From Trametes villosa (Eukaryota > Basidiomycota > Agaricomycetes > Polyporales > Polyporaceae), in NCBI GenBank assembly GCA_002964805.2, contig PUDQ02000016.1, positions 558,001 to 622,000 on the forward strand: a stretch of DNA of 64,000 nucleotides, given 5' to 3'. The notes under the pieces were generated by a model. It was given only the letters and a program-made list of their open reading frames with translations. It was not told the origin of the DNA and ran no database searches. Each line of letters opens with the position of its first letter. The stretch's first letter is position 1. Positions 10,840 to 59,155 of this stretch are shown piece by piece. The position numbers and the translations under genes were made by a program.

Positions 10840-11262
10840 TGATACGCCCGGTGCACCGCTGACTCCAGAAATCGCGACACAGGCGGCAGCGCACACACTT
10901 GGATTTCGCGATGGCAGCGCGCGCGCAAAGCTCGCGACAGGGCCTTGGGAGCGAGTGCGCGCAGGAGCTCATTGGGCAGCGCGGGGCGCGAGTCACTGTC
11001 AAGAGGCGGGCGCAGCACACGCGGGGCCCTATCAGGTGCGGGCGCTAATGGCGCGGCAGGCATTCCGAGCGCGCGCGCAGTGGGTGCGCGGCGGGCGCGA
11101 CGGTCCGCGCGCGGCGCGGAGCGGTTCCCGAGAAGCAGTCTAGGCCGCGCTCGGGTCCAGGCTTAGGTAGCTACGGTCCCTCCATGTATCTTCGCGCCTC
11201 GGGCGCTAGACAATTCAGATTCCTTTCCCCCTCACCCTCAGGAGCTCAATTGCGTCTGCGTC
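10840..11262 (+). repeat. 5' part of a Gypsy-type LTR, split by the KDZ element
   Basis: It begins TGATACGCCC and follows LTR 39271-39972 closely for about 420 bp, up to GCGTCTGCGTC. The missing 3' part of the same LTR resumes at 27366. Together the two parts make about 717 bp, against 702 and 735 bp for the other two copies in the window. Confidence 0.88.
11255..11262. repeat. Left target-site duplication of the KDZ element (TCTGCGTC)
   Basis: The same octamer abuts the right end at 27358-27365, while the uninterrupted LTRs at 39271 and 40713 contain it once at this spot. A 7-bp reading (TCTGCGT), with the element starting CAGCTGG, is equally possible. Confidence 0.85.
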
Positions 11263-11576
11263 AGCTGGTGGTGTGGGAATGATACATCAAGTACCGGTTG
11301 TTTGCCTGGCCCCTGATACAAATAATGCCGGCTGTGCACCTGAAGTTTCAGGTTCCCCCGGTGGGCTCCGGTGGTGCCTCTTGGGCCCCCTTCGGCTTCT
11401 CGGCTTCCTTCCCGAAGCGGTAGGTCCGCCGCCCTTCCCCCGCAATGCCCGCCAGGACGTCCGAATGCGGTTCGGCACCTTCCGCCGGTGGCACGTAGCG
11501 TCCCAAAAGGGTAGACCGCCTCCTCCGGGCGCTTTTTCACCTCCCAAAGCGGCCAGTAGCCTCGCGCGGGCGCTTA
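11263..11576. repeat. Left terminal inverted repeat of the KDZ element
   Basis: The reverse complement of 27001-27357 matches it with scattered substitutions over its whole length, apart from an additional 41-bp tandem duplication in the right copy. An 86-codon open frame shared by both copies follows from the repeat and is not by itself evidence for a protein. Confidence 0.88.
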
Positions 11577-11766
11577 GTACTTGGGCAGCAAGCGAAAATG
11601 TATAATAGATGCTGTACTCTCCAGTTAAGCTGCAGGCAGGCAGTAGGCAGTCAATAGAATGTTAAGGAGATGCACAGCCATTATATTCCAGCACACAACA
11701 ACACAACAAGACCGTACAGGGGAAGATTGCAAGCATACAGAGAGGGACGGTGTAACCTAAGTAATA
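11577..11766. other. Spacer between the left KDZ terminal repeat and the first cargo gene
   Basis: AT-richer sequence with no open frame of note. It probably holds the 3' UTR of the minus-strand gene that ends at 11767. Confidence 0.4.
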
Positions 11767-14700
11767 CTACTGGTGGCGCATCTTCTTGGCCTTGCTGGTG
11801 GGCTGCTCGGGGTCTGCTGAATGCTTGCTGCAGGCCAGTTAGTATGTGAATGTAATGAAGAACGTGAGCACAGAACTAACCCTCCAGCCTGGGTGCCACA
11901 GGACGCCATCTGCCAGATCACCCATCCAATGTCCAGAACAGCCTCCTGGCACTCGTCCTCAGTGGCGATGGAGATGTCTTTCCACCACATGAGGGAGAGC
12001 AGCGCCATAAATACACCGTTCTTGCCGGGGTGATCGAGTGGGCCCCACGGTCCCGAGCCCGTGCGGACGGGTGCACCATGCTCCCCCTTTCGCCAGTCCG
12101 GCTGTAGCTCCAGCCACCAGGTGTTCCACGCGCGCGCGTAGATCTCGTCGTCGGAAATCTTCGGGTTCTTGTCAAGCTTTCGTCCGTACTTGACCCACTC
12201 CGCAATCGCGGGCGGGCGGGCCTTCGTCGGGAGGCTCTTCGTCTGGCAAATAAGTCAGCAAAAGGGTGAACAGGCATTAACGCGATAACCTACTCACCGT
12301 AGTTTCCCAGTCGCGCGTGCGCTCATACACCGTCCACCAGGCAACAGCCCGGCGGAAGTCCTCCCCATACTCCTCCCTGTCCAGGCGTTTGAACGCCTCC
12401 TTGATCCAGGATGGCCATCCACTCATGTCGACGGCCACGTCGGGAACCGTCGCAGGGACTGCAGGTGCAGGCGCGGTAGAGGTTGCAGGCGCGGGCGAAG
12501 AGGACGTTGCGGGTGCCGTCGCCTTCGAGGCACGTGGGCGCGGGCGCGGGCGTGGCGGGCCTGTCGTCGCAGATGTCGCCGACGCTGCGGGCGCGTTCGC
12601 TGCCGCGGGCGCGTTCGCTGCCGCGGGCGCGTTCGCCACGGTCGCGTTCGCCGCCGCCGGTGTGCTCGACATCGCGGTCACGTTCGCGTTCGCGGTCGTG
12701 TTCGCGGTCGCGGTCGTGTTCGCGGTTGCGGTCGTGTTGGCCGCCTCGGGCGTGTTGGCCGCCTCGGGCGTGTTGGCTGCCTCGGGCGCATTCGACGTCG
12801 CGGGCGCGATCGACGTCGCGGGTGTGCTCGACATCGCGGGCGTCGTCGCGTTCGCGTTCGCGGTTGCGGGCGTTGTCGCGTTCGCGGGCGCGGGCGCGTT
12901 GGCCGCCGCGGGCGTGCCCGACGCCGCGGGCGTGCCCGACGCCGCGGGCGTGCCCGACGCCGCAGGCGTGCTCGACGCCGCGGTCATGTTCGCGGCCGCG
13001 GTCATGTTCGCGGTCTCGTTCGCGTTCGCGTTCGCGTTCGCGTTGGCCGCTGCGGGCGTGCTTGACGCCGCGGGCGTGCTCGATGTCATGGGCGTGCTCG
13101 ACGTCGTGGGCGTGTTGGCCTGCGCGGGAGTACTCGACGTCGCGGGCGCGTTCGACGTCGCGGGCGTGTTGGCCGCCGCGGGCTTGTTCTACGTCGTCGA
13201 CGTCAAGGTCGCCGCCGCGGGCGAGCTCGACATGGATCCGTTCGACGCCACAGGCGTGTTTGATGTCGAGGGCGCGTTCAATCCTGGAGGCGGAGGCGTT
13301 GGCAGCCCGGACGTCGCAGCTCCAGGGGACGTGGATGTGGAGGCGCCTTCATCCTCTCGTGCCTGAAGACGACCCGACCGCCTGGGGGGCTGTGTTGCAA
13401 TCGACGCGTTGGGCGCGTGCTTCTTCGACTTGCGCTTTTTCTGCTCTGGCTGCTTTGGAAGAAAGCCGTACTTGCTTGAGATGGCGGCCATGGCCGCGGC
13501 GTTCCGAGCGCGTAGGTTCTCAGCTTCGCGTTCCCACTCGGACGAGAACTTCCACCGGAACATCTGGGCGTGCCGCTGTTGAGCCGGGAGTGCGTTCAGC
13601 GTCGCCGCCATTTCATCCCCAAACCCGAGCTCCTCCATGGTGGGGGTAGGTGCGCGTGGCTTTTTCGACGCCTCCCCGGTGAGCTCATCTCCTTCCTCGT
13701 CTTCATCTTCGTCCTCCTCATCGTCGTCGTCGTCCCCCTCATCATCCCCACCCGGCTCGTCGTCGTCGTCGTCGCTATCCTCCTCCTCGTCCTCATCGTC
13801 CTCATCGCTCGAGCTCTCCGAGCTTGAGGTCGCCTCCGGCTCCTCGCTGCCCTTCTTGCTGTGACGCGATGCGCGCGCCGGCTGTTTCCCCTTGCGACGC
13901 GAGGCTCCACCGCGTTTGCCCGTACCAGCGGACGGACTGGGCAGAGGGGAGATCTTCAGGCCGAGGGACGAGAGCTCAGCGAGCGCGGAGTCGCCAGAGG
14001 GGGGACCGTTTTGCCTAGTCCGCTCTAAGTACTCTACGCACGACGTTAATAATGTGCTGCTCGACTAGCGGGGTGCGACTTACCGGGAGTTTTCATCAGG
14101 AAGCGCGTGAATGAATGCATCACGTCCGTTGAGAAGCGTTCTTTCTCGTAGACGTGCCACGGCTGGGGCACGGGCCCGGCAGTCCGGCCAGTAGTGACGC
14201 TAGATAGCACAGGTTAGCAAATGGCCTGCTGCCATGACGGTGTACTCACACTTTCAAGAAGAAGTCCTGAGGGCCGGCGGGGAGCGGGACTCCAGCAATC
14301 AAAGTGCAGTACAAGCCTGTATACTGCTGTAAGAGCTGAAGGAGCGGCTGCACGACCGTTGCGAAGTCCTGCCGCGCGCTGTATAGTGTGAGTATGATAG
14401 GAGATTAGTGCAAGATGCGTACATACCGGTGCAGCGCCTCCTCATCCGTCTCCTCTGCTGCTGGCAGGGCGTCCGTCTGGTGCGCCGCGAGATCCTCCTG
14501 ATGCATCTCCTTGGCCTGCACCTTCAGCGCGTCGCGTACTTCCTGTGGCTCTTGCGCATAGAGCTTGCGCGCGATCTCGCCGCGAGCGTTGAGATGCTCC
14601 TCCTTCGGGAGCTCCGTGTGCGCCCAACGCTCCTGGAACACCGTATTGATCTTCTCGGTGTTCAGGTTCATGTACACCTGCCATGAGGCGAGGCGGCGCG

Positions 14701-15254
14701 GGTTCGGAAGGTCCTTCGCGCGGGTCTTGAGACAGGCGAGGAGGGGACGCCAGGGGTTGTTCTCTTTGAGCTGCTTCTGGGTGTAGCGGTACCCCAAGTG
14801 ACTCTTGATGCGCTGAAGACAATGTCAGACGTTAGGGTATTCTTACCAGGCGAGACATACATCTCCTACGTACCTGCTTGGTCTGGGCAACGACCCTGCC
14901 GTGCTCAGCGTCCACCTCAGGACTCGATGCGGGCTTTGGATACTCGTGAAGATCTTCTGGCTCTTTGTTGAGGGGGAGGTACCAGGGGAACTTGGCCCAG
15001 TACGCCGCGAAGAGCTTGTTCCAGTACTTGTTCGTGACCGAGCGACCTGACCCCTTGATCTCCGCGAACTCCGGGAAAAACTCGTCCAGCAACGCCTTGC
15101 GGGCGCCGTGGAAGTTGCCCTGGTTCCCGGCCTTTCCTCCCTTTTTCTGCTTTTCGCGCCTCTTCTTCCGCCGGTCGCGTGTCGCTTGGGAGCTGGTGTT
15201 CGGTGCTCGGGAGACCGTGATGTCGGTGGCGTCAAAGGTTACGTCCGGGTTCAT
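11767..15254 (-). CDS. Large low-complexity Agaricomycete-specific protein (KDZ cargo)
   Basis: Start at ATG 15254 (MNPDVTFDATDI). Exon 1 (15254-14874) has a basic stretch and the motifs GNFHGARKALLDEF and FPWYLPLNKEPED; exon 2 (14812-14427) carries NNPWRPLLA and NPRRLASWQVYMNLN. I remember these motifs from a large Agaricomycete family without assigned function. Further exons give a Glu/Asp/Ser-rich acidic tract, an Arg/Lys-rich stretch, and about 250 residues of Ala/Asn/Thr/Pro repeats (roughly 13090-12480). The protein then ends with SWIKEAFKRLDREEYG, W-W-x-V-Y-E-R-T and a final KAKKMRHQ, stop at 11767-11769. An in-frame TAG at 13189-13191 interrupts the repeat tract and I found no frame-preserving intron that removes it. 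The copy may therefore be inactive or be read as two pieces. Function unknown. Confidence 0.55.
12480..13190 (-). repeat. Degenerate coding repeat (Ala/Asn/Thr/Pro)
   Basis: On the minus strand short units such as SGTPAA, NTPEAA, NANA and NAPAA recur in long runs. At the DNA level they form a GCG/TCG-rich array of short, diverged tandem units. This is replication-slippage-prone sequence inside the cargo gene at 11767-15254. Confidence 0.75.
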
Positions 15255-16112
15255 CTCGGAGGGCACACAGGGGAGGCGGCGGCGCTGAGGCAAGTTAGAG
15301 CAATGCAGAACAGGTGGAGGAGGAGACGCGAGGCAGAGTGACACAAGTTGGACGGAGGAGTACGAGGAGGCGCAAGGCGCGCGCAACGCGTAGCCACGTG
15401 TGCAGGTCCCAACTAGATCACGTGGTCAGAACGAACTTGATCGATGCGTCGCCGTCAGCGCTGGCCTCTGAGTCTTATCTCTCGACCGCCACCCTCCCTT
15501 CTCTCTGCTTCCCGCCTTCGCCTTCGCCTTCGCCTTTGCCGCACCTACGCCTGCTTCGACTTCACGCTCATGGGTCGTGTCGATCCGGTTCTCATTCAAG
15601 ACTGGGACCAGCTCGCCGGCTCTCTGGGCCACACTCCGAAGTTCAATGCGGCCGGAGTGATCATCCCGATCGGCGCGCCCTGTCCCGAAGGCAAGACATA
15701 TGTGGTCTGGGTTGGACGAGCCATAGGGCTCTTCAATAATTGGTGAGATCTCATGCTTTTCCTGGGAGTGCACTAACCGCCTAGTAGGGGCCTCACGAGC
15801 GCGATGGTGACGGCCTTCCCCGGCGCCATCCACAAGTCGTTCCGGAAGCTTCACGATGCGCGCATTGCGTGGTCCCAGGGCCCCTCAAGGCTGCCGAACT
15901 GGACGCCTCCGGCTCCCCGCCCGGCGCGGCCGACACCGGGCTTGAAGGATGCGCCACCCATCGCTAGCCCCAAGGACGGCACGTATGACAAGACTACTCC
16001 CCTCCTCTCCCCCCTCCCAGCCATACCGATCCGCCTCCCGCCAGAGGCGGCTGAAGAGGCTGCCGTCTCCCGCCCCGGGCGCGCCGAGCGCACACCGTCC
16101 TCTCCCCCGGCC

Positions 16113-18724
16113 CAGCAGCTGTGGTAGTTCTATTATAACATGGTCCGTCTAATAGCCCAGAGCGCATTACATTATAAACCGTAGGCCTTTTATTATAACA
16201 TTTTCCGGCCCTCCCGCCCTATTAGCAGCCCGGGCACCTGCCTAATACGGCCGATTTCGGCGGGTGGCTGCTTATCAGCCCCGGCCTTTGTTATCTCTTG
16301 TAGATAGTACTCTTATCTCATCAACCCGAGCTTCCGGCTACCCGGGTGGCGCGTGAATGCGCGCGCTTTGGCTTTCGGCTGGGAACTGCCCCGATTAGGC
16401 AGGTTCCCCTCATCCCACCTCCCTTGGGCAGCTCTCCCTCCCTGTATCTCGTGCGTTCCGCGTCCGATCCGCCTCGCAAGTGGCTCATTCGATTCGCATT
16501 TTCAAGGGCTACACGATACAACAAACGCGAAATTACTCCGGTACGTACTTATGTTGCTACACAGTAAACACCTAAGCCCCCTTGGGCGACGCGATCCAGG
16601 CGATAGCTCGCCCGGTTTGCGTTGCACCGGGGCGCGCCTGGGCTCCCCAGAAAGCGGCTGAGCAGGGCTTTCTGGCGAGCCCAGGAACGCGCAATTCCGT
16701 CCAGCCGATCGGGTTCTGCGCTCCTCCCATCTAGGGGAGGAGCCCAGGAACCCCTCCCGGGCTGTACATCGCTCATTTCGCATCGGATGCGGCTTGAACC
16801 TTGTACAGCCCCCCAAAACTCGATGGTCATGCGCTGATTTAACCTTTTAGCCCAGATAAAGCTCTGGAAAACACCAGACAGCGTTGTCCTGGGGCCTTGC
16901 CCCTGGGCGACGCTTTGCTCGATATCTCGGGCGTCCGGACGCGCGCCGCGACCGTGTGCATATCCCCGGAAAGCTGCTGAACGCAGCTTTCCGTAGGTAT
17001 GCTTACGGTGGCAATCCGACCGCTCGTCATGGTGCACTCCCCCCTCCACCTCGCCATCCCTTCCTCCCCCTCTCCTTCACTTCCTTCTTCCAGGCTCCCT
17101 CTACCACGCCCACCAGCCGGCTCTAAGGACCCACAGGGCCCTCATGTACATAGAACAGCACTCTGGCTGTCTACATATCCCTTCAACTCGCCACAAAACA
17201 TATATTTGTTGTTCTGCACTGGACAGTGTTGCATACAATACCCCATTGTCACTGACAGGGCCCATGGGCCAAACAACGAATAGTTAGGTTACAAAGCACT
17301 GTAATACAGCTTTAAAACACATCCAGAATGAGGCTGATCGGCCAGAAACCCATAGAGATATGTAATTTACTGTTCTAGAGAGGCTCTCAGCACTGTTGTA
17401 GTGCATGGAAGCCCGGGGCAGCCACTGAGACCGTCTTAAGACGGCCTGTGGCTGACCCCTCTTCACGGAGATCCTGACATATCTCCAGCAGGAAAGCGCG
17501 AATTCCTTAGCTTTTTTACAGGTATGTACCTGAGATGAGGCCCTACGGGGATCAGCTCTCAGAATGCCTATCGGGTGCGATTTGGGCCGGGGATCGCGTC
17601 GTCTACCTGGGCATACCTAGAGGTACTGATAAGCCCAGGTAACGAAGGGCAGCAATTTCGTTACTGATCGCATCATACAGGGAGATAGTGCTACCTTTTA
17701 TGAGGACGGGAGAGGTGGAAACAAGAGAATCGGGCAGGAATTGAATGAGTAGTGGGGGAGGGAAAGGGAGGAGGGGGTGGGGAGAGGCATAACACGACTA
17801 CGGGGGTTCCAGCGGTCGGATCGTGACGAACAGCATACCTACGGAAAGCTGCGTTCAGCAGCTTTCCGGGGATATGCGATTCGTCGCGGTGCGCATCCGC
17901 GTTCCCGAGGTATTGAGAAAACGGCCGTCCCAGGGCCAGACCCCAGGATGAGGCTGTCTGGAGCCGTTCTGATGCTGTACCTGGGCTGTAAAATCGGATG
18001 AGCGAGTGTCTATCGGGTTTTGGGAAGCCTTACCACGTTTCAGCCTGTCCTGCAGCAAATTGAGCGAAATACCGGCCAGGAGGGGATTCTGGGCTCCTCC
18101 CCTACATGGGCGGGGCGTAGATCCTGATCCGCTGGACGGAATTGCGCGCGCGTGAGCTCGCCAGAAAGCCCTGCTCAGCCGCTTTCTGGGGAGCCCAGGC
18201 GCGCCCCGGTGCGACGCGAAACGGGCGAGATATCGCCCGGATCGCGTCGCCCTAGGGGGTCCAAGTGTGCACTGTGCAGGGGCGTGAGTACGTACCGGAT
18301 CGCTAAGCGCTATAGGAGAGTATTGTAGCCATGGACGATCCGAATCGAATGAGCCACTTGCGAGGCTGATTGGACGCGGAACGAGCGAGATACGAGGGCA
18401 GCAAGCTGCCCAAGGGAGGTGGGATGAGGGGAACCTGCCTAATCGGGGCAGTTCCCAGCCGAGAGCCAAAGCGCTCGTATTCCCGCGCCACCCGGGTGGC
18501 CGGGAGCTCGGATTGATGAGATTAGAGTCTTATCTAGAGGAGATAAGAAGGGCCCGGGCTGATAAGCAGCCACCCGCCGAAATCGGCCGTATTAGGCAGG
18601 TGCCCGGGCTGCTAATAGGGCGGGAGGGCCGGAAAATGTTATAATAAAAGGCCTACGGTTTATAATGTAATGCACTCTGGGCTATTAGACGGACCATGTT
18701 ATAATAGAACTACCACAGCTTGTG
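16113..18724. mobile_element. Foldback (long-TIR) DNA element, 2.6 kb
   Basis: The two ends are reverse complements over about 0.9 kb each (roughly 16113-17027 and 17811-18724), leaving a loop of about 0.8 kb. Termini read CAGCAGCTGTGGTAG on the left and, inverted, CACAAGCTGTGGTAG on the right. CCCGGCC lies directly outside both ends (16106-16112 and 18725-18731). Removing the element and one heptamer leaves the host frame continuous, which supports these borders. The arms contain smaller nested hairpins, for example CCAGAAAG...CTTTCTGG near 16640-16670 and GGAAAGCTG...CAGCTTTCC near 16970. No transposase frame is visible, so it must be mobilised in trans. Confidence 0.85.
17028..17810. other. 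Loop of the foldback element, no gene
   Basis: Between the arms the sequence is comparatively AT-rich with only short frames (for example 60 codons on the minus strand at 17284-17466). None matches a family I recognise. Confidence 0.5.
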
Positions 18725-19435
18725 CCCGGCCTCGCCGAGATCGTCGAGCGCATCTAGCGTCTCGAGCGCGTATGAGACCCCGGAGGAATCCGGTGGCGGG
18801 GCCCAAGTCTTGGCTCGTCCGCGCGCTGTCGGCGCGTCCTCCGCCCGCTCAAATCGTGCGGGTTCGTACTCGTCTACCTCGCGCCGTCGCGCTCACTCCC
18901 CCGGCGCGCTCTCGTCAACGGCTTCTCTCTCCAAAGCGGCGGTATGGGCCGCCAAGGGCAACGGTCCAGCCAGCCCGGGCTCAGCCCGCGGGGTGGACCA
19001 GGTCCTCGTGCACCCGGGCAAAAGGGTATACGCTGTCGTGCGCGGCGATCGCCCTGGCGTCTATCTCGACCGGTATGCACGCTCATCTCTCATTGGGGAA
19101 TCACTGGCTGATTCTATCTAGATCTACCGCCCTGCTGAACGCCGGCTGGCACCCGGGCATGAAGATTGTCCCCTTTCCTACGAAGGCACAGGCGTCGTGG
19201 TTCTTCACGGAGAGCTACATGGCGGGGGAGGTCGGAATACCGGTCGTTGAGATCGATGAGGAGGACGAGGCGCTCGAGCTCGAAGGGCAGGAGGGCTACA
19301 GCAGCGACGATTTGTAGGCCCATTGGGGGGCGTGCCTTCGCTAGCTTAGCTGCATCATAAGGACTCGTGTCTCAAGTACCTCGCCCGCATGTAGTTCACC
19401 AGTTCGTATGAATGTTATATCATGTGTATGTGCTG

Positions 19436-20106
19436 TTACACCGTTCGCCCAGCCTCTACACTATCAGCGCGAGCCTCTGCTACTGCAATCATCCACTGGA
19501 CTTGGAAGACTACAGAGGTAATCGACCGCCACATGAACAATGCGTACCGACGACCGAGCGTGTCAAGCAAGCCCTCGCCCAACCAACCCTCGATGTCGTC
19601 CAGGATCGAGTCACCGTCCTCGAGCCACCTATTCCATGAGCCCACCCACGCTTCGTAAGCTTCTCCAGATCTCCGCGCACCGCACAGTCCCTCGTCCACA
19701 GCGGCGATATGGGTCCCCCTCTCGTAATGAAACCCCCAATGGTGAAGGCGCGAATTGAAGGTGGCGAGGGCGGAGCTCAGCGCCGTGTTCGGTGTCCGCG
19801 GAACTGGAATGGGGCCGGACCTGTAGGGCTCTCAAGTTAGCCGTAAGTCGTAGACACTGTAGCACAGAGCGTGAGGCGTACCCCACCACGAGAGCCAGAG
19901 CTTCAGTTTCGGATTCAGCTTCTTGTGCGGCAGAGCCGTCGCCCTGCTCAGCTTTGCGCCTATGTCGGCCGCCCTAGGATTAGAATACAACTGCTGAGCG
20001 TGTGGATGTCAGCTGTGACGTACTGCCTCAGCTTCTCGCGATGGCGCAGGTTGCGATTTTTGCGTAGCAATTTGCTGCGGGCAGCGCGGAGCTCGGCGTC
20101 CTCCAT
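19436..20106 (-). CDS. Small hypothetical protein (KDZ cargo)
   Basis: On the minus strand ATG 20106 opens MEDAELRAARSKLLRKNRNL, a basic, probably helical stretch. Open segments follow in shifted frames (ATALPHKKLNPKLKLWLSWW), and then a well-formed last exon with RLHHWGFHYERGTHIAAVDE, VGSWNRWLEDGDSILDDI and FQVQWMIAVAEARADSVEAG, ending at 19436. Exon borders in the middle are not resolved; a short intron near 19820 with pyrimidine-rich acceptor is likely. I do not recognise the family. It lies inside the KDZ element between the viroplasmin-domain gene and the TET/JBP gene, and runs in the same direction as the latter. Confidence 0.4.
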
Positions 20107-20380
20107 GCAGTCGCGCGGGTGTGGAGATGACTGCACTTCGAAGAGACGAACGGTCGGTGTCGCATTGCAGAGGCTCAGGGGAGAGGTGTGTGGTAGAGAG
20201 GTGTTGCACGCGGATATTGGGGCCGGCGAGTTGTCTGGTCGTCGGGCGCGCGAATGGACAATGCGGTAGCGGGTGGAAATGGGGGTGAGCCAGTGCTGTC
20301 GTTCAATGACGCGTCAGTTCGACGAGTGGCTTGTGGGGCATAGACCAAAGTAACGCGGTGCACGCGAGCGCTCGTGCCGA

Positions 20381-20444
20381 GTGAGACGCGTCTCACTCTC
20401 AAGCCCGAGACGTCGCGCACGCGCGCACCGACGAGACGCGTCTC
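20381..20444. repeat. Paired GAGACGCGTCTC palindromes
   Basis: A perfect 16-bp palindrome GTGAGACGCGTCTCAC occupies 20381-20396 and its 12-bp core GAGACGCGTCTC recurs at 20433-20444. They lie just downstream of the TET/JBP gene inside the KDZ element. They could be protein-binding sites; this is inference. Confidence 0.6.
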
Positions 20445-20512
20445 AGCGCTGCCATCGTCTGCACACGTTCGAGTTCATTAACCTGCATTCAAGTAGTACC
20501 TATGCACGCTGT

Positions 20513-22402
20513 CTACCGTTCGGAGCTATCTGTAAATTCCGTCCACTTACTGAGCATATGCAGGCCATCTTGCCCCCAGAGCGGAGCCTCCCCACGGCAT
20601 TCCCCCAGGCGTTGAGATCTATCGTAGTCCTTCTTGGAGCGATAACCGCAGTCCGCCCAGCGGAAGAGTCCGCCAGCGGAGTATTGCGTAAAGGAGTAGC
20701 GCGCCTCACCATCGCGCAGTCGAGTGTTAGAATGTCGGAGGACGGCGGAGGGGATAAGGATGGTAGCACCGGGTGGGAACTCCACAACCATCCTTAGATC
20801 CCACAGGACAATGTGGCCGCCTTGCTTGGGGTCGAACTTGCCCAGAGCTGTGACCGCGCACCACCCCCACGGCAAGTTGTACCCGTCCGTGTGGACGTAC
20901 GTGACGGTTTGGGGCCCGAGGTTGAACGTGCACGCCGCGAAGGCGCTTCGCGGGAAGAGCGGGGCCAGACGCCTATTGCGTGCGCACAGACCATCCAGAG
21001 TGGATTTGTAGTATCCGTGTAGGCGGGGAGCGAAGAGCCGGAGCGCACCTGAAGCAACATTTAGTACGTACCAGCTGCGCGGGATGGACGCGCACATACT
21101 GCTGCCGAAGTGCGCGAGGCGCTCGATGCACGGGCTGCTGACCAGGTCGTCCGCGATGCGTTGTACACGGTCGGTGTTGCTGAAAGGTCTGGGACACTGG
21201 AAGCACGGTTAGTAAGCGGGGGCGTGACAAGTGCGGCTGCCTACCGTCTGCCCGCCGCCGTAGGATATTCCCGTGGTGATGCAGGGGTACGCCCCGCGAC
21301 GATGAGCGGCGGCGGCGGCAGTTAATCCGTACGCGCGGCCGGCATCGTCGAGGAGAGTGGCTGCCTCGCGCGTGGCGTCCTCGTAGCCGTCGTCCTTGGG
21401 AGACCCCGCCAGCACGGCAAACACCGTACCGTCGCGGTCGACGAGGGGGCGGGGTGTGCTTGAGATACCCTGTCACCGTCTGGATTATAGCACTGTACAA
21501 GCGTGAGTACTCACCGACCATCCCATTCCACCAGCTCGAACCCATCCTCCAGTAACTCCTGTAACGAGACAGGCCGGCTGTCAGACGCGGTCGCCTTGAT
21601 GCGTCGCGCGATGTACCCGGACGCCACGGTGGGTAGCCTGCTATCTCGGAAGGACCGCGATGAGCTCATCCCCGGGCGCGCCTTGGCATCCTTCATTTGG
21701 TCTAAGCGAACCGCCTTTGCATCCGCCCGCCGTTTGAGAGCGATAGCCTTGAGGGCGTGACCGAGGGCGTCAACCGCACCCGATGCCTGCGCCGCGCGCG
21801 CGCGCGCGACCTTACGCCGCCTCTTCGCGCGGTGCTTTGTGTGATAGAGCTCCTTCGTCATCGAGTCAAGGCCGGCGGGGGTGGTCTTGAGAGGCGGCGC
21901 CGCACGCGCACAGTTGGTGGCGCCGGCACCGAATGGCGCGGCCGGCGGGCGCGGTGGCTCGTCGTCCACAGGGATGGCCTTCGGAGGCAGCGTCGCGCGC
22001 GCGCAGCTGGTGGCGCAGGCACCGAACGGCACGGTAGGCGGACGCGGTGGCTCGTCGTCCGGCGCGTGCGAGGCCACGCGAGCGCCGGCGTCCGACTCTC
22101 GCGGCGGGGTGGCTGGTGGCGGTATGCACGCGGCGGGTGCGGGGGCGCTTCGTTCCATCGCGTCGAGCAGATCCGACAACTCCTCCGTAGCGCGAGTGCT
22201 ACCGGCTTGTAAATCAAAGCCTTGCGGGGCGTGAAGCGGGGTGCCAAAGTCGGTGGACCAGGGCGAGAATGCCCGGCCTTGGCGGGTCTGTAGCATAGCA
22301 AACAGTTAGTAGTAAGAAGCGCGCACCACCGAGCGCGCACACTCTTACCTGACGGAAGGGTGGCCAGTCGAGGGGCGCGTTGAGGACTCCTAAGAAATAC
22401 AT
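20513..22402 (-). CDS. TET/JBP-family 2-oxoglutarate/iron(II) dioxygenase
   Basis: Exons on the minus strand: one ending at 22349 (LNAPLDWPPFRQ), 22287-21515, 21469-21245, and 21196-20513. The exon 2/3 phase is not fully resolved, and the first exon may extend upstream because TTCTTAG precedes it. The N-terminal half is Pro/Ala-rich, with two diverged copies of DDEPPRPP and a Lys/Arg-rich stretch. The C-terminal exon holds the catalytic double-stranded beta-helix: H-T-D (iron ligands), then GWCAVTALGKFDPKQGGH, VVEFPPGATILIPSA, distal H in RHSN, and R in RYSFTQYSAGGLFRW (2-oxoglutarate). Every key residue is present. Fungal TET/JBP enzymes oxidise 5-methylcytosine in DNA. The gene lies head to head with the KDZ transposase, about 350 bp apart, probably sharing a promoter region. 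Confidence 0.88.
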
Positions 22403-22751
22403 CGTCAGCACAGCGGTCTACCGAAGCAAGCAGCGCGCGCGCACGCCGGATGCCACTGTCCGGGTTCCAAAGTCGAATCCACGCTAGGTGGACCCGGCGT
22501 GCGCGCTATGCCGAGCGCAGTATGTACTCACCGGTGACCCTGGCTGCAATGGAAGATGGATGAGCGAGAGACATGATTACGGCGGGGGAGGGTTGGTCGA
22601 ATGCGCAATGACCTGGCACAGAGGGAGGAGGAGCGAGCCTACATGGGAGGGCGGCGAGGCAGTAGCGCCCGCACGCGATGTGATACTGGGAGGTAGATCC
22701 CTGGTGCTCGCACGACCCATTCTTGGTGAAAGAAGCACTCCTGGCGGCGGC
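22403..22751. promoter_or_regulatory. Shared intergenic region between divergent TET/JBP and KDZ transposase genes
   Basis: About 350 bp separate the two divergent genes, short enough for a bidirectional promoter. Upstream exons of the TET/JBP gene may also begin here. No TATA box was seen. Confidence 0.4.
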
Positions 22752-25700
22752 ATGCGCCGCAGACCTCTCAAGCGGGCACGGCCAGACATGGAAGATTCCC
22801 ACTGCGAGTTCGACATCGCTGCGTCTGAGGCGGACGCTACTCACATCCCCCTGATCTCCACTACTCCCGTCGTCCACATCGACAATGTCTCGTCCGACCT
22901 GCGCCGCGTCTTCCGGGAGTCAGTACCGCTCTCAAGCCCATCCGTCTCTGCAAGCCCGATGCCGCTACCCGCTCCTGGCCTTGCACCCGGAATAAACATA
23001 GGGACAACGGAGGATTGGGACCCATTCCTGCCGCGGGCCTCGCCTTCGGAAGCGGACGCTCAGGGCACCCAGGCAGACGACGGCCCCGAAGATCGACCAC
23101 CCCCAGCGGTGTGCGACGAGTCCGACCAGATCCATGCACCCCGGTATGAAAGCTCAGTAAGTCCGATGCCCTAGACTGGTCAGTTTGCGCCTCTGACCAC
23201 CTGCCCCGTTTTTAGGACGAGCCTATGAAGCGATGGATACCGTTGGCCCAGGACTACCTAGACGAGAACATACGCTACGAAGGGCGCGGAGACTTCGCGT
23301 CCGAAGCATGCCCTGGCTGCAAGTCGCGCGGAGACTCAGACCAAGGCCCTCCGCGCATCCCCACTATCCGATGCCTGGATTGCTCGCCAAAGATGTACTG
23401 TGAGGAATGCATGGTGACGCGGCACGAGGATATGCCATTCCACGTCTTACAGGTGCGTCCGCCGGCACCGCATCGCTTGAGGACTTCACGCTGACACGAG
23501 TACTATAGCGCTGGACAGGTCGCTGCTTCGAGCGCACCTCGCTTCGTGATCTCGGGCATACGATCCAGCTCGGCCATGCGGACGGTACGTCTTGCCCGGC
23601 GCCGCGGCTCCCGCGCGCCGACTTCTGCGTCATCGACGTCAACGGTCAGCACAAGGTCGACCTGCGGTTTTGCGGCTGCGACATGGCCGGGCCCGCTGGG
23701 ACGCCCGCTCAACAGCTCCTTCGCCAAGGCCTGTATCCTGCAACCGACAGCGAACCACACACCGCCTTCACCTACCGCGTACTCGAACACTACCACCTGC
23801 AAAGCGTGCAAGGGAAGGTCTCAATGTTCGACTACTACCGCACCCTAGAGCGCCTCACGGACAACACTGGGATGAAGAAGCTCCTCGATCGCTACAAGAC
23901 GTTCATGCGCGTCGTCGCCCAATGGCGCTTCCTCAAACGGTTGAAGAGAGCCGGTCGAGGGCACAGCGCGGATGGCGTAGAGGAGACTAAACAGGGGGAA
24001 CTCGCGGTACGTTGCCCCGCGTGTCCGCGTCCGGAGTGCAACCTACCGCCGCAGTGGGAGAGCGTGCCGGAGAACAAGAAGTACGTGTCAACATCGCGAA
24101 GTATGCGCTTACTCACGCATGCGTACACAGATATCTTTACACACTCTGCGCCTCCATGGACGCCTGCTTCCGCTTCAAGCGACGCGCCGTATCTAACGAG
24201 GAGAAGGATCCAATTCTGGGCAGCGGGTGGGGGTATTTCGTCGAGGATAAGGCTTACAAGCAGCTGCTGGAAGAGTACGGCGATCAGACCGAGGTACGCT
24301 CAGTTTCGGCGGTCCGACAACGCGACACCCTCTAATCCGTCTGCCACCTCGCCCAGATAAGCACCTGCACCGGCCTTTCCGCGATAGATCACGCAAACAC
24401 GAAGTATCACAAGGGCTATGCGGCGACGGGCATTGGCGCCGTCCTCTGCTCTTGCCATGAATTCATCCTGCCCAACGGGGTGGGCGATACACAGAAGGGC
24501 GAAAAGTGAGTACAAGTTATATATGCGCGCCCCTCGGCCGCCTCTCACAAGTCAGGAGCTAATACATCTGTCAGACACGTCAATATGGATTATATATTCA
24601 CGTGCTCAATGTGCCATCACCGCCACGTCGGCAAGCACATCTGCTACGATATCGCATGCCAATGGTGTCGACATCTCCTCGCGCGACTGGAGAAGTTCCC
24701 TGAAGACATCCGCATCACGCTACCGGAGGGCTCGATCGTCTACTCCATTCCAAAGCTACATTGGCACAGTCACAAGCAACTCGACCACTCGAAGTTCTCG
24801 CTGAACTACCGCGTTGGCGCAGGCAGGAACGACGGCGAGGGCTCCGAGCGGCGGTGGTGGGAGCTCCAACCAATCGCCAGTAGCACGAAGATGATGGGAC
24901 CGGGCCAACGGCAGGGGGTGTTGGAAGACCAGTGGGGTTACGCTAACTGGCGGAAGTATGTGAATCTAGGTATGTTTATTTCTCCTCCTTCAACAGCCCG
25001 GGCACACGTCCACATCGCGTGTCGCCATGCGTCGCGCGCGCTCTCCTGGGCACGCGTCCGCGACACGCGTGGTATCGCGCACGCGCGCATCCCTGGACAC
25101 GCGCTGTATCGCGCGCCGGTGGAAACGCGTCTGCGAGTGGTATCGCGCGTCGCGACGCGTGGTATCGCGTGTCGCGACGCGTGGTATCCCTGTGGCGCGT
25201 CGATCATGACGTCACGCGTCTGGCCAGGTCCCGGGAACCTCGGGCGCGTGTCACAGTGCGCTGAGGTGCGAGCGTCCGACTAGATCGGAGCGCTGCATAT
25301 GACGTCATGCTACCCAGGCTGCCCGCGCGCAGGACGTCGTGCGCTCGTGTTCCTCGCTATGACCTCACGCGCACCTGGGAACTGCTCTATAGTCTATGTC
25401 TGTATTGATCTAATGTTCTGCCTACAGCTTGGACTCTCTCTAGCCGCTTGGAGGACGCGCTCTCAAGCTATGCTGAGCATCGCACCCTGCTCGCCTCGCT
25501 GACTGCCTCCCTCAAACGGCGCCACATCAACGCCTGGAAGAAGGCAGTGACTGAGTGGGAGAAGGACAATACACGCGAGGATCCGTATATCGCGGCTGGT
25601 AATGGTACGTCCGTCGCGCCTCCGTCGCGGATATTGTATTGATGACCGACTGCTAGAAATAACTGAGGCGCAAGTGCGCCAGCAAATGGCAGCAGAAGAA

Positions 25701-26915
25701 CAAGCGGCTAGCGCACAACCGGGCTACACAGCGCGACATGAAGTTAGCGTACTAGGGTTCATGACGATGGGCCTAGATCTCGAAGAGCAGCAGTGTGTCA
25801 TGCCCGCCTGCGCCCGTTTGAGCTGAGTACTGACGACCATCAGGGCTCGACTGCAAGAGGACGCTAAGGGTGCCCCCGGCTCCCGGCTGCCCCTTCTCTT
25901 CGAACGCTGCACCGCGCTCCGAACGCGCATACAGAAATTTCGCGACCTGCAAGCTACCTACATGCCCGCCGCCCTCCCACTCCTCTCTCAGCTACCCCAA
26001 GCTCAGACGGATACCGAGCTTATCGAGAACATCCGGCTATGCCTCCCATCCGACATCTCCGCCCCACACCGCGCATCGGTCTGCAGCCCGGAGCTGCTCA
26101 CGCTCGAGTCTCGACTTCGTGAGGCGCAGTGTCGCGACGCGTTACAGGACATACGCAACAAGATTCACACTCTCCACCACCTCCACCGGTACAAGCAGGC
26201 CAACGTTCGTCATCAAGGCCCAAACACGCGCGCGCAGAGCAAGCTCGACGCGCAAGCGAGTCGACGCGATCGCGCGGTGCAGAAGTATCGGCGCGCACGG
26301 CGGGCGAAGCTCGTGCTAGATGGACCTGGCGCATGGGAGGAGGTCCTCCGCGTTCTCCGAGACGAGGACGTTTGAGGGGTTGTGGCGATCGATGTCGACG
26401 AACCGCGGAAGAACAAGAAATCACACAAGGGCAAGGGCGGCGACGAGGCAAGCAGGCCTGGAGACGGTCATCGCACGGTATCCTGGATCTGGAACGCGTC
26501 CGACGCGACCGGCAAGGACGCGCACGTCGAGTCGCTTCGAATCGAATGGCTCAAAGCTCGGGCTCGCTGCATGCGATGGGAGGAGGAGACCCAGATCCTC
26601 CCGGAGGAGATGCGTCGAGTGCTCGCGACGATGCGTCACGAGGAGGAGGAGTGGGTCCGCCGAGCTGGTGCACGCGCTGAAGTGGACAGCCGTCTGCAGG
26701 AGGGCCTGGTATCGTATGCGTACGATCAGGCGCAGATCCGGAGGGCGATGCGCGTAGTTTTCAGAGCGGTTTGTATAGACAATGCCCTGGCTGCCAACGG
26801 CGGTACCGGTCCCGACTGGGACCCACCTGTGGGGTATGTTCTGACAAGCTCTGAAGGTTATCAGCCCTCAGACGCTATTGCACGGGCTTGGGTAGAGTCA
26901 GAGGAGCTAGAGTAG
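22752..26915 (+). CDS. KDZ transposase with CxC2-type cysteine cluster; one premature TGA
   Basis: Start at ATG 22752 (MRRRPLKRARPDM). Introns 23157-23215, 23453-23508, 24081-24130, 24294-24356, 24506-24574, 24970-25427, 25605-25656 and 25793-25843 keep one frame. An acidic N-terminus is followed by CPGCKSRG, C-L-D-C and C-E-E-C, then the CxC2 stretch (RWTGRCFERTSLRDLGHTIQ, C-P-x-P, V-I-D-V-N-G-Q-H, F-C-G-C). The catalytic core has SMDACFRFKRR (first D), STCTGLSAIDHANTKYHKGY, CYDIACQW (second D) and GEGSERRWWELQPIASSTKM (E). The C-terminal helical region is conserved (NIRLCLPSD, RTLL-type repeats, YRRARRAKLVLDGPGAWEEV). A TGA at 26373-26375 interrupts this region; the same frame reopens at once and ends at 26915. 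The product moves the element by cut-and-paste DNA cleavage. Confidence 0.88.
24970..25427 (+). repeat. Oversized intron with ACGCGT / GGTATCGCG repeats
   Basis: This intron is 458 bp; the other introns of the gene are 50-70 bp. It holds six ACGCGT sites between about 25052 and 25219 and several copies of (A)CGCGTGGTATCGCG-like units, two of them in tandem (TCGCGACGCGTGGTATC near 25151-25190). The sequence is very CpG-rich. Confidence 0.65.
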
Positions 26916-27000
26916 TATATTTATAACTATTTATTTCGTTCTAATGCCGCCCCAAATGCGCCAGCAATGTATGTCGGAAATGCGACAACATACCACAAAG

Positions 27001-27357
27001 GTAAGCGCCCGCGCGAGGCTACTGGCCGCTTTGGGAGGTGAAAAAGCGCCCGCGCGAGGCTGCTGGCCGCTTTGGGAGGTGAAAAAGCGCCCGGAGGAGG
27101 CGGTCTACCCTTTTGGGACGCTACGTGCCACCGGCGGAAGGTGCCGAACTGCATTCGGACGTCCTGGCGGGCATTGCGGGGGAAGGGCGGCGGACCTACC
27201 GCTTCGGGAAGGAAGCCGAGAAGCCGAAGGGGGCCCAAGAGGCACCACCGGAGCCCACCGGGGGAACCTGAAACTTCAGGTGCACAGCCGGCATTATTTG
27301 TATCAGGGGCCAGGCAAACAACCGGTACTTGAAGTTTCATTTCCACACCAGATGGTG
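27001..27357. repeat. Right terminal inverted repeat of the KDZ element
   Basis: Inverted copy of 11263-11576. It differs mainly by a 41-bp tandem duplication (27005-27045 and 27046-27086, one mismatch). The outer end reads CAGATGGTG and is followed directly by the target duplication TCTGCGTC at 27358-27365. Confidence 0.88.
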
Positions 27358-27365
27358 TCTGCGTC

Positions 27366-27659
27366 CCCTCTCTGCGAATAGCGTCTTGCGTTGCGTTGCG
27401 TTGCGTTGCGTTCCTTGCGTCTTTCACCGCGCCCATATTCGTGTCCCCCCCCCCCTCGCGAGCGCCTGCTCGTAGCTACCTTCGCGCCAGCGCCGCGACC
27501 TTCGCGAGACATGCCAGCGCATCGCGCTCTCCCCGCGAAGGGCACCCCGACTCGAACCTAGCTTCTCCCTCGCTCCGCGCTTAGCTTCCCTACAGGCCTC
27601 GTCCTCCGAAGGCCCTCGGCCTGTCTCTGGTTGTCCCTAGGGGATAGTTGAGTGCATCA
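27366..27659 (+). repeat. 3' part of the split Gypsy-type LTR
   Basis: Resumes at CCCTCTCTGCG, exactly where 10840-11262 stops. It ends GAGTGCATCA like the LTRs at 39271 and 40713. It holds a TTGCG pentamer run (about 27390-27415), shorter in the other copies, and a poly-C tract. TTCTGGTGACC directly after it is a candidate primer-binding site. Confidence 0.88.
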
Positions 27660-30852: not shown

Positions 30853-31152
30853 GAGATGTATAGTAATAGCTCACCTCAGTCTGTATTCGCAGGACTGAGG
30901 TGGCCGGGCAATCGCATCGTAGCTATATAGACCACAAGACAAGACGTGTCGAGTACAATAGGAACGAGACCGGGCAGTGCCCGTAGACGTATAGGGATGA
31001 GGCACAAAACATACGAGTCAAGAACAGAAACAAGACCAAAGGCCGATCGTACCAGTCCTAGTCATGCGCGCGCGCGAACGCGCGCGCCGCCCTCCGCCGC
31101 GCCGTCGCGAGCTCGCGCACGGCTTGCCCGCGAGCGCCCCGATTCTCCAACA
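30751..31152 (-). repeat. 3' LTR of the Copia element
   Basis: 402 bp, same length as the 5' LTR and one difference. It includes an internal repeat TATAGAACGAAATCT at both its edge and about 55 bp inward. Confidence 0.93.
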
Positions 31153-31159
31153 CTCCCCC

Positions 31160-34100
31160 TCAAGCCTGCGCGAGCCCGAGCGCGGCTGCGAAATGCTTGA
31201 CCTTGACGGACGGCAGCGCCTTCGTCAGGATGTCGGCGGTCATGTCGCCAGTCGGGCAGTAGAGCAGTCGAATAGAGCCGGCATCGATAGAGTAGCGGAT
31301 GAAATGGTAGCGCACATCGATATGCTTCGTGCGCGCGTGATAGGAGCCGTCCTTGGTGAGCGCGATCGCGGCCTGGTTGTCGTTGTAGAGTGTGGTCGGG
31401 TCTGCGAGGGGGCCGAAGACCTCGCCTATGAGCTGCCGTAGCCAGACGGCCTCCTTCGCGGCGTGCGTCGTCGCGACGTACTCGGACTCGGCTGTACTGA
31501 GCGTGACAAGTTCTTGCTTCTTCGACGCCCAAGAGACAGCGCCGCCATCGACCAGGAAGACGTACCCAGTGATCGCGCGACGGTGCTCCTGCGTGGCGCC
31601 GTCCGCATCGACAAATCCTTCGAGTTCGCGCTTCTCGCCACCGTAGACCAGCGAGAGCGTGCGTGTGCCCAGCAGATAGCGAAAGACTCGCTTGACGGCG
31701 TCCCAGTGAGGCTGACCAGGGTTCTGCGCGAACTGCGCGAGAGTGGAGACTGCGAACGCGATGTCGGGTCGCGTTCCGAGTGCCGCGTACATGAGCGCGC
31801 CGACGGCCTCTCGATAGGGCACTCGCCGCATGCGCGCGACTTCAGCGGGGCTCTCGGGGCACTGCGTCTTCGAGAGCAGTTGGTGCGGGTCCATGGGCGT
31901 CGAGACCGGCTTGAGGTCGGTGAAATTGAAGCGTGCGAGGAGAGCGTCGATATAGGCATGTTGGGAGAGGGAGAGGGTGCCGGCGGTGAGATCGCGGGAG
32001 ATCTTGATGCCCAGGAGCCACGAGACAGACCCGAGGTCGGTCAGCTTGTAGAGAGCACCGATCTTCGCCTTGTTCTCATCGAGGAGGCGTTGCGAGCTCC
32101 CCGTAACGAGGCAGTCGTCGACATGGACTGCGAGCACGACGAAGTGCTCACCTTCGCGCTTGTAGAACACTCCCCAGTCCGCCTCCGCCCTCGTGAACCC
32201 CAGCTTCCCGAGCGCCGCGCACAGCGTCTCATACCACTTCCGCCCGCCCTGCTTCAACCCATACAGTGCCTTCTCGAGCTTGAGGACAAAAGCCTTTCGG
32301 TCCGCGAACGCGTGGTCAGGTGGCTGTTCGAGGTAGACGTCCTCGTCAAGTTTCGAGTTCAAGTAAGCGCTGTTGAAGTCGAACGAGTCTGCTGCCCAGC
32401 CGTTGCGAGCCGCGATAGCCAAGAGAAGACGGATAGAGGAAAGCTTAGCGACAGGAGCAAAGGTGTCGTAGTAGTCGACGCCGTAGATCTGAGTGAAGCC
32501 CCGAGCGACTAGCCGGGCCTTGTACTTGTCGATTTCGCCGGCAGCGTTCTTCTTGACACGGAGAACCCATTTAGAGTCGACGACATTGCCAGTAGAGGGT
32601 CGGGGGACGATGCGCCATGTCTTGTTCGCGACAAGGGAGTCGAGTTCAGCTTGAATGGCGTCCTGCCACTTCGGCCAGTCTGGGCGCTTCTTTGCCTCCG
32701 CGTACGTCGGCTCGATGCACTCGGCGTCTCCCGCTGCTGCCGCCATCGCCAGCTCCACCTCGTCCTCCACCGTTCGCGCCATCGCCGCCGTCTCTCCTTC
32801 CTCTTCCTCCTGGACCTCCTCGATCCTCGCCGTTCCTTCCTGGACACCTGTCGGCAACGCTGGTCCTCCCGCGCGTCCCGACACCGTGCCTTCGCCCGCC
32901 CTCAGCCGCCGCACATAATCCGATTCCTTACGGACGCGCGACGACCGCCTCGGCTCCCCCTCACTCTGCTGCTCCGGCTCCCTCGCAGCCGTCTCGATCT
33001 TCTTCGGCCTGGAGTCCTCGGTAGGGATGGGAGGTTGGGGAGTAATGGGTGGATCGGGGAGTGAAGATGTCGGAGAGGGTGCACGCTCGTCAAGGTGAGT
33101 ACTCACAGGAGGCTGCGCCGTTTGACTCTCCCCCTCGAGCTGCACCTCGACGTTGCTGTCTGCGTTCGGGAACACAACGCTGCGCTCGACCGTCACCGTG
33201 TGACGTTTCGGCCAGTAGACCCGGTGCGCGTCCGATTCCTCGTCGAACCCAACCCATCGCGCCTCCTCCGCCCTCCCGGACAGCTTTGAACCGCCAGGCG
33301 AGTGCACGCGGACTCGACACCCCCACACATGCAAGTGCGCGAGGTTCGGCTTGCGCCCCCAGAAGAGCTCGAACGGCGTCTTGCCGTTGAGTGCTCGGGT
33401 CGGCGTTCGGTTCTTCAGGTACACAGCATGAAGAGCGGCTTCCCCCCACAGCGCCTTGGGCAGCGCCGCGTCGTGCAGCATCGCGCGGACCTTCTCCATC
33501 ACGGTACGATTTCCCCGCTCCGCTATGCCATTGTACTCCGGCGTGTCATGCGCCGTGAGCTTCCTGATCGTCCCATCTTCGTCCAGCAGCTTCGAGAAGT
33601 CCGCGCTCAGAAACTCGCCACCCCGATCGGAGTGCAAGCACCGAATTCGCGCGCCCTTCTGCGTCAGGTAGAAGCCCCGGACTTTACGAAAAGACGACAG
33701 GGTCTCGTCCTTCGTGCGCATGAGGTGGAGGGAGGAATAGCGGGAGTAGTCGTCGGTGTACATCGAGTAGTACTGACGTCCACCCAGGGTACGGACAGGG
33801 GACGGTCCCCAGACGTCGGCGTGGACTTCTTCGCCGACAGTGCTCGCTCGTGGACGTACGCGCTCGGTCGCGATCGCCTTCCGCGTCGTCTTGCCAGCAG
33901 CGCAGGACTCACAGTCCTCGACAGGTCCGTCGGTGCTCGACAAAACCAGCCCTTCGACAGCTCCGCGCGCCACCATGTTGCGTGCGGCCTCAGGTGCGAT
34001 GTGCCCAAGTTCGCGGTGGAGTTCCTCCCGCGTGACTGCACGAACCGGCCCCTCCTTCTCCGTAGCCGCTGCTGCTGCCTCGCCTCGCGGAATACGAAGG

Positions 34101-36198: not shown

Positions 36199-36203
36199 CG
36201 CCA

Positions 36204-39270: not shown

Positions 39271-39972
39271 TGATACGCCCGGTGCACCACTGACTCCAGA
39301 AATCGCGACACAGGCGGCAGCGCGCACACTTGGATTTCGCGATGGCAGCGCGCGCGCAGAGCTCGCGACAGGGCCTTGGGAGCAAGTGCGCGCAGGAGCT
39401 CATTGGGCAGCGCGGAGCGCGAGTCACTGTCAAGAGGCGGGCGCAGCACACGCGGTGCCCTATCAGGTGCGGGCGCTAATGGCGCGGCAGGCATTCCGAG
39501 CGCGCGCGCAGTGGGTGCGCGGCGGGCGCGACGGTCCGCGCGTGGCGCAGAGTGGTTCCCGAGAAGCAGTCTAGGCCGCGCTCGGGTCCAGGCTTAGGTA
39601 GCTACAATCCCTCCATGTATCTTCGCGCCTCGGGCGCTAGACAACCAAGATTCCTTTCCCCCTCACCCTCAGGAGCTCAATTGCGTCTGCGTCCCCTCTG
39701 CGAATAGTGTCCTGCGTTGCGTTGCGAACTGCGCCCCCGCGTCTTCCCTAGCGTTCCCACTTGCGCTCTCACTGCGAAGCCTACCCGCCAGCGCTCCGCG
39801 TACGCGTTGCGATCCGCGCGAGACTTGCCAGCGCATCGCGCTTTCACCGCAAGGGCACCCCGACTCGAACCTCGCTCCTCCTCCGCTTTGCGCTTAGCTT
39901 CCCTACAGGCCTCGTCCTCCGAAGGCCCTCGGCCTGTCTCTGGTTGTCCCTAGGGGGTAGTTGAGTGCATCA
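39271..39972 (+). repeat. Gypsy-type LTR, copy A (702 bp)
   Basis: Starts TGATACGCCC directly after a polypurine tract and ends GAGTGCATCA. It is the uninterrupted version of the LTR that the KDZ element split, and shows the empty target site. Confidence 0.88.
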
Positions 39973-59103: not shown

Positions 59104-59155
59104 ACACTATTTAGCTGTATTTGTAGCTGTGTTACAGTTAGATCGAATATACATT

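What the first reader, a model, noticed from the sequence alone, without database searches (positions are those of the whole stretch)
11255..27365. 16-kb KDZ transposon with cargo, caught between two halves of one LTR
The two ends are inverted repeats of about 315 bp, the octamer TCTGCGTC stands at both borders, and the LTR flanks rejoin to match LTR copy A (39271-39972), which shows the empty site. The interior contains KDZ transposase, TET/JBP dioxygenase, a small hypothetical, a double viroplasmin-like gene and a long low-complexity gene. A cut-and-paste element this large carrying a DNA-demethylation-type enzyme and several unrelated genes is a cargo-bearing mobile element comparable in concept to fungal Starships, but of a different class. 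KDZ-TET/JBP linkage is established knowledge; the exact borders, the full gene set and the three extra cargo genes may not be described.
Basis: partly seen in the sequence, partly recalled or inferred. Interest (0 to 1): 0.95.

Follow-up and report, generated by a model that had tools for sequence, protein, structure and literature searches.

The report
Five-gene transposon with methylation eraser
A 16-kilobase fungal jumping gene keeps four partner genes that stay together at all seven places where the family was found in this genome, among them an enzyme predicted to strip methyl marks from DNA and so likely to protect the element from silencing; jumping genes of this kind are already known, but the fixed gene set appears not to have been described.

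Summary
The element is real. It spans window 11262-27357 (16,096 bp), with 307-bp subterminal inverted repeats (98.4%) and a 7-bp target-site duplication (TCTGCGT), not 8 bp. The rejoined LTR flanks match the empty LTR copy A. Four more copies with the same ends (12.9-26.2 kb) lie elsewhere in this genome, each with its own 7-bp duplication; two further loci keep one end. The element carries a KDZ transposase. The other genes are not casual cargo: g1 (unknown), g2 (RNase H1-type hybrid-binding domains), g3 (unknown) and g4 (TET dioxygenase by fold) stand in the same order at 7 of 7 loci and show purifying selection. The window copy is damaged: a 2.6-kb element splits g2, and g5 has an in-frame stop. 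TET-carrying KDZ elements with 7-bp duplications (Kojima 2025) and mobile TIR-bearing KDZ elements of about 10 kb (Cryptococcus) were already known. Apparently new: the constant five-gene unit, and relatives of this TET beside Plavaka transposases at 14 of 33 TET loci; Trametes gene models suggest TET-g3 adjacency in other fungi. De-silencing by TET, and any helper role of g1-g3, are inferred. Starship-like variable cargo was not found.

The parts
11262..27357 (.). KDZ transposon, 16,096 bp
   Evidence: shared termini in five copies, 7-bp TSDs, empty site
11255..11261 (.). left target-site duplication TCTGCGT
27358..27364 (.). right target-site duplication TCTGCGT
11269..11575 (+). left inverted repeat, 307 bp (outermost 7 bp 11262-11268 not repeated)
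   Evidence: 98.4% identity to the right arm
27044..27350 (-). right inverted repeat
11767..15254 (-). g1: predicted 987-aa protein of unknown function, acidic and repeat-rich middle; predicted exons 14874-15254, 14427-14812, 14250-14378, 14084-14199, the rest less certain
   Evidence: conserved between copies, dN/dS 0.155-0.191
15570..16112 (+). g2, 5' part: first RNase H1-type hybrid-binding (Cauli_VI, PF01693) domain
   Evidence: Pfam E 3.6e-5; Lenzites homologue E 9.3e-15
16113..18724 (.). nested 2,612-bp element without detected coding, 0.91-kb inverted arms, TSD CCCGGCC (16106-16112 and 18725-18731); splits g2
18725..19314 (+). g2, 3' part (end approximate): second hybrid-binding-like domain
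19436..20106 (-). g3: predicted 180-aa protein of unknown function
   Evidence: conserved; a homologous domain follows TET in T. sanguinea and T. versicolor gene models
20513..22402 (-). g4: TET/JBP-type dioxygenase, predicted 557 aa; HxD and distal H in the exon 20513-21048
22752..26915 (+). g5: KDZ transposase with CxC2 cluster; KDZ domain hit 24138-24947
   Evidence: PF18758 E 2.9e-51, PF18803 E 7.4e-40
26373..26375 (+). in-frame stop codon in the C-terminal part of g5, absent from the C3, C5 and C93 copies
10840..11261 (.). left half of the interrupted LTR (with TSD)
   Evidence: 96.7% to copy A
27365..27659 (.). right half of the interrupted LTR
39271..39972 (.). LTR copy A, the empty-site reference

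Best explanation
This is a 16,096-bp KDZ-type DNA transposon that carries a KDZ transposase gene, a gene of a TET-fold dioxygenase family and three further genes, and that likely moves by transposase cutting at its conserved ends while the predicted dioxygenase likely oxidises methylcytosine on the element's DNA so that the host cannot keep it silent. Shown: borders, inverted repeats, 7-bp target duplications in five copies, the empty LTR site, the constant g1-g4 order at seven loci, substitution patterns of purifying selection on all five genes, the KDZ assignment by profile, and the TET assignment by the fold of a homologue. Inferred: transposition by cut-and-paste, enzyme activity, and the de-silencing role. 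Least certain: g2, with two RNase H1-type hybrid-binding domains, would bind RNA:DNA hybrids or RNA made at the element, and g1 and g3 would be further partners. The window copy is predicted to be unable to make all its proteins, because g2 is split by a nested element and g5 has an in-frame stop.
Confidence: 0.7

Rival explanations
1. A cargo carrier in the Starship sense: KDZ machinery with unrelated host genes picked up by chance, differing between copies.
For: Size 12.9-26.2 kb and several genes with no obvious role in transposition.
Against: The same four genes in the same order at 7 of 7 loci, purifying selection, a g3-like domain after TET in Trametes gene models. Much of the extra size comes from nested transposons: a 10.3-kb KDZ element and a 2.6-kb element in C3, an insert with a hAT domain in C5; the C45 insert is unexplained.
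Confidence: 0.07
2. g1-g3 are transposition factors (end binding, regulation) and TET acts on the donor DNA during transposition rather than on silencing.
For: Constant linkage to the transposase; dN/dS of the same order as TET. Other KDZ elements move, with no TET mentioned in the passages read: Cryptococcus KDZ1-3, 9-11 kb (PMC12810828).
Against: g1-g3 were found only in this family (apart from two g2 relics), although the genome has many other KDZ genes, so they are not general KDZ factors at this sensitivity.
Confidence: 0.22
3. The genes serve the host (a host TET pathway spread by transposons), and the element is a relic.
For: At least 33 TET loci in the genome; the window copy is broken in g2 and g5.
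Against: g1-g3 were found only in the element family, apart from two g2 relics; five copies remain bounded by matching ends and TSDs.
Confidence: 0.05

Closest known systems
TET+ Kyakuja elements of Agaricomycetes (Kojima 2025, PMC12730594; parts 1-4 of 7 of the text, section 4.2 and figure legends read; supplements not seen)
   Same: KDZ transposase, TET/JBP gene, 7-bp TSD, CA..TG termini; Polyporales among the hosts.
   Different: The paper says the two Laccaria Kyakuja families have no TIRs; here 307 bp. In what I read it names no further genes in Kyakuja. It calls Kyakuja TET close to CcTET; here CcTET is reached only by fold. It reports only Kyakuja TET+ elements in Polyporales.
KDZ1, KDZ2, KDZ3 of Cryptococcus neoformans (PMC12810828, passages)
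   Same: KDZ transposase with a cysteine cluster, 9-11 kb, 139-241-bp TIRs; shown to insert into a reporter gene in culture.
   Different: 8-bp (KDZ1) or 4-8-bp (KDZ2, KDZ3) TSDs, CxC1 instead of CxC2; no TET mentioned in the passages read.
KDZ and Plavaka elements of Marasmius oreades (PMC8290104, passages)
   Same: Says that TIR motifs of its KDZ and Plavaka elements were characterised (supplementary figure, not seen), so TIRs on KDZ elements of mushrooms are not new as such.
   Different: TSD length, gene content and TET are not in the passages read.
TET+ Plavaka elements (Kojima 2025)
   Same: TET next to a Plavaka transposase; this genome also has TET beside Plavaka.
   Different: Another transposase superfamily; the paper has TET+ Plavaka only in two Agaricales species and lists Plavaka under PE-type (HxE) TET, whereas the Plavaka-linked TET cores read here have HxD (10 of 10).
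Pleurotus ostreatus helpo1.3 10.7-kb insert with capD-capE-capF (PMC4289320, passages)
   Same: A Cauli_VI (viroplasmin) gene and a nuclease called a putative transposase between inverted repeats.
   Different: Read there as genes captured by a Helitron; whether it is a KDZ element was not tested here.

Membership tests
KDZ DNA transposons | KDZ transposase domain (PF18758) with CxC cysteine cluster | tested here: met
   E 2.9e-51 over 217 of 217 profile positions; CxC2 E 7.4e-40
KDZ DNA transposons | Defined ends with target-site duplication | tested here: met
   7 bp in 5 of 5 two-ended copies
Kyakuja (within KDZ) | 7-bp TSD and CA..TG termini | tested here: met
   criterion from PMC12730594
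Kyakuja (within KDZ) | No TIRs, as stated for the two Laccaria families | tested here: not met
   272-350-bp inverted repeats in 5 of 5 copies; whether absence of TIRs defines Kyakuja as a whole is not said, so I call the element KDZ, not Kyakuja
Kyakuja (within KDZ) | Transposase groups with Kyakuja, not Dileera or Zisupton | not tested
   reference transposases not held
TET/JBP dioxygenases | Fold closest to TET among 2OG-Fe(II) oxygenases | tested here: met
TET/JBP dioxygenases | HxD ... H iron ligands | tested here: met
   4 of 4 g4 models; in 37 relatives H308 invariant, D310 and H361 at 90% or more
TET/JBP dioxygenases | Oxidation of methylated bases | not testable with these tools
   needs an enzyme assay
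AG-type TET (Kojima) | Close sequence kin of CcTET | tested here: inconclusive
   profiles A1 and A2 did not reach CcTET at E<=10; no AG-type reference sequence to compare
RNase H1-type hybrid-binding / viroplasmin domain | PF01693 match | tested here: met
   first domain of g2: window E 3.6e-5, Lenzites homologue E 9.3e-15
RNase H1-type hybrid-binding / viroplasmin domain | Second domain of the same fold | tested here: inconclusive
Starship | Variable cargo between copies | tested here: not met
   g1-g4 constant at 7 of 7 loci
Starship | Tyrosine-recombinase captain | tested here: inconclusive
   none among the Pfam hits, but not every frame was scanned; a KDZ transposase is present

The most novel reading that the evidence does not exclude
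The five genes form one self-protection machine: the double hybrid-binding protein g2 senses RNA:DNA hybrids at the element's own transcription and, with g1 and g3, brings the TET enzyme to that DNA, so that demethylation is targeted in cis to the transposon. The TET gene itself has been handed between KDZ and Plavaka transposons.
Probability: 0.15. Interest if true: 0.8.

Novelty: new variant of a known kind. Interest (0 to 1): 0.5.

Why it matters
Transposon-borne TET genes are known, but Kojima 2025 states that their function is not experimentally validated. A constant, selected set of partner genes gives concrete candidates for how such an enzyme might be aimed at its own element. Related TET genes beside two different transposase superfamilies in one genome make the gene's movement between transposons testable. 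The exact borders, the empty site and several diverged copies give material for direct experiments.

Tried and rejected
Octamer as TSD: rejected, 7 bp in five copies. Chance or old inversion: rejected by copies, TSDs and the empty site. RIP or CpG-decay signature: not found. Coding content of the nested 2.6-kb element: no Pfam match, no codon periodicity (22 copies, L027 dropped because an end is missing). Autonomous partner of the 2.6-kb element by its terminal 17-mer: 36 sites, 35 of them at matches listed, one (C49:69365) not followed; no longer partner recognised. Pfam Tet_JBP over the genome: no match, but the control rang nowhere, so this shows nothing. PDB by sequence with TET profiles: only matches that I take for chance. 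Borders of TET-Plavaka elements in two 10-kb stretches: no convincing inverted ends, so TET-Plavaka is adjacency only. Insert in C45, about two thirds scanned: no Pfam match. Host species: not identified; the nearest TET proteins are from Trametes at about 40%, so a polypore-like Agaricomycete is inferred. Iyer 2014 not held, so whether it lists g1-g3 is unknown. Searches for the gene set in print. Rows left out: C3 in g1, the window in g2, C45 in g5; the C5 g1 model contains false exons in its insert, which the identity filter drops. The g3 and g4 window models typed were the first ones, later corrected; the corrected g4 was not rescanned, but the T. sanguinea homologue also matched no Pfam family.

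Full report
What is there. The window is G000:C16:558001-622000 of an unnamed 46.7-Mb genome. Self-comparison gives an inverted pair 11269-11575 and 27044-27350, 98.4% over 307 bp. A search of the own genome with the left end gave four more inverted pairs. Reading their borders side by side fixes the ends as CAGCTG(G/C)TG... and ...CCACACCAGATGGTG, with 7-bp duplications TCTGCGT, GCGGATG, CATGCAA, GCCCTCC and GGGTCTG. Joining the flanks restores LTR copy A across the site. The C93 copy (C93:16047-28945) sits inside an older relative: g1-g4-like sequence on its left, KDZ sequence on its right. A further left end lies at C1:5708346.

Genes. Comparing stop-free segments between copies marked five coding regions, modelled with a small gene finder. 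g5 is a KDZ transposase with a CxC2 cluster. g4 in a first model, and its T. sanguinea homologue, match no Pfam family. g4 has 49 relatives in the protein search, 47 of them named and, as I recall the genera, all from Agaricomycetes; the best is from Trametes at 40% identity. A homologue folds confidently, and its nearest solved structures are CcTET, NgTET and TET2, well above other 2OG oxygenases. g2 has an N-terminal PF01693 domain. In the model of a Lenzites homologue a second domain has the same strand-helix order and superposes on the human RNase H1 hybrid-binding domain, though without a significant Foldseek E-value. g1 and g3 matched no Pfam family. g1 had three and g2 five relatives in the protein search. 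The T. sanguinea and T. versicolor TET gene models run on into a g3-like domain (E 2e-17 and 7e-16, single comparisons), which suggests the same TET-g3 neighbourhood in other fungi.

Cargo or core. Searches of the own genome with parts of g1, with g2, an exon of g3 and a core of g4 find the same seven loci in the same order: the window, C3, C5, C45, two at C93, and C1. g2 also gives two weaker extra loci. g4 gives 33 loci in all (a lower bound), 26 of them outside the family and without detected g1-g3. g5 of the family is found at six of the seven loci, not at C1, and in C45 it is interrupted. dN/dS is below 0.31 in 36 of 38 comparisons and below 0.5 in 38 of 38 (only 20-residue windows with at least 9 identities, which lowers dN). 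Without that filter, substitutions favour the third codon position in 17 of 17 comparisons. The extra genes are therefore a maintained part of the element.

State of the window copy. A 2,612-bp element with CA..TG ends, 0.91-kb inverted arms and TSD CCCGGCC splits g2. g5 has an in-frame stop that the C3, C5 and C93 copies lack. Inserts explain size differences elsewhere: C3 holds a 10,280-bp element with a 7-bp TSD, 20 of 20 matching terminal bases and a KDZ match, plus a 2.6-kb element; the C5 insert has a hAT dimerisation domain.

Other TET loci. Of 33 TET loci, 13 have a Plavaka match within 5 kb and 17 within 10 kb, counted against 47 positions that I took from the 144 matches. One of the latter, C60, has a 2.6-kb element between TET and Plavaka, which makes 14. 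Three neighbourhoods of 10 kb were read: ten long reading frames gave a Plavaka match about 2 kb downstream of TET at C71 and C19, none at C102; g1, g2, g3 and KDZ queries found nothing in the three. Three other loci have a KDZ match about 2 kb downstream of TET. In a 67-row tree of a 170-column core, with 21 of the 33 loci, the seven five-gene TETs form one group (100/97) and the three simple-KDZ TETs another; the ten Plavaka-linked TETs do not form one group (bootstrap not settled, root arbitrary, and the transposons of the 46 database rows unknown). The 16 cores printed all keep HxD. Kojima 2025 reports only Kyakuja TET+ elements in Polyporales and no cross-superfamily transfer in the AG type. 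Because Plavaka borders were not found, the contrast rests on adjacency and on the inferred host group.

Mechanism. Shown: a mobile element by its footprints, its gene set and selection on it. Inferred: transposase cutting at the ends, TET oxidation of methylated DNA, and escape from silencing, as Kojima also argues. The host has matches to DNA methylases, but no mutational scar of methylation was seen. Guesses: g2 binding hybrids or RNA; g1 and g3 as partners.

Known and new. KDZ elements with TIRs that move are known (PMC12810828, passages); TIR motifs of KDZ elements were characterised in Marasmius oreades (PMC8290104, passages); TET+ Kyakuja elements with 7-bp TSDs and CA..TG termini are known (PMC12730594). 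The constant five-gene unit with its hybrid-binding gene did not turn up in the searches, whose listed papers were mostly seen as listings only. Iyer 2014 and all supplements were not seen, so prior listing cannot be excluded.

Noticed in passing
window 16113-18724 and 22 further copies (L027-L046, C3 and C1 copies): A 2.6-kb family without detected coding, with 0.91-kb inverted arms and 7-bp TSDs (exact in 18 of 23 copies examined, one more with a 1-bp shift). Length is nearly constant (mostly 2607-2617 bp) although copies are down to 72% identical to the window copy; almost all gaps are 1 bp. Why length is so fixed without coding is unexplained.
   Followed up: partly
30 near-full 2.6-kb copies against 33 TET loci: 8 of 30 lie within 10 kb of a TET gene; transposon clustering was not controlled for.
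   Followed up: partly
C19, C71, C126, C99, C12, C1:576k, C10:3189k, C127, C60, C129, C113, C3:2100k, C17, C45:99k: TET genes next to Plavaka transposases, with HxD in the 10 that were read, against the published picture of Polyporales and of HxE Plavaka TETs.
   Followed up: partly
C3:2978342-2988621 (inside the C3 copy): A 10,280-bp element with about 333-bp inverted repeats, 7-bp TSD ATGCACG and its own KDZ match: a KDZ element nested in a KDZ element.
   Followed up: partly
window 58871-63164: A 4.3-kb element with 234-bp inverted repeats (98.7%) and a possible 9-bp duplication CTCCCTCGG; no Pfam match.
   Followed up: partly
window 30751-31175 and 35797-36220: Direct repeats of about 425 bp at 98.1%, possibly the LTRs of a 5.5-kb retrotransposon.
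   Followed up: no
Pleurotus ostreatus helpo1.3 (PMC4289320): The published genes captured by a Helitron, flanked by inverted repeats, may instead be an inserted TIR transposon with a g2-like gene; not tested.
   Followed up: no
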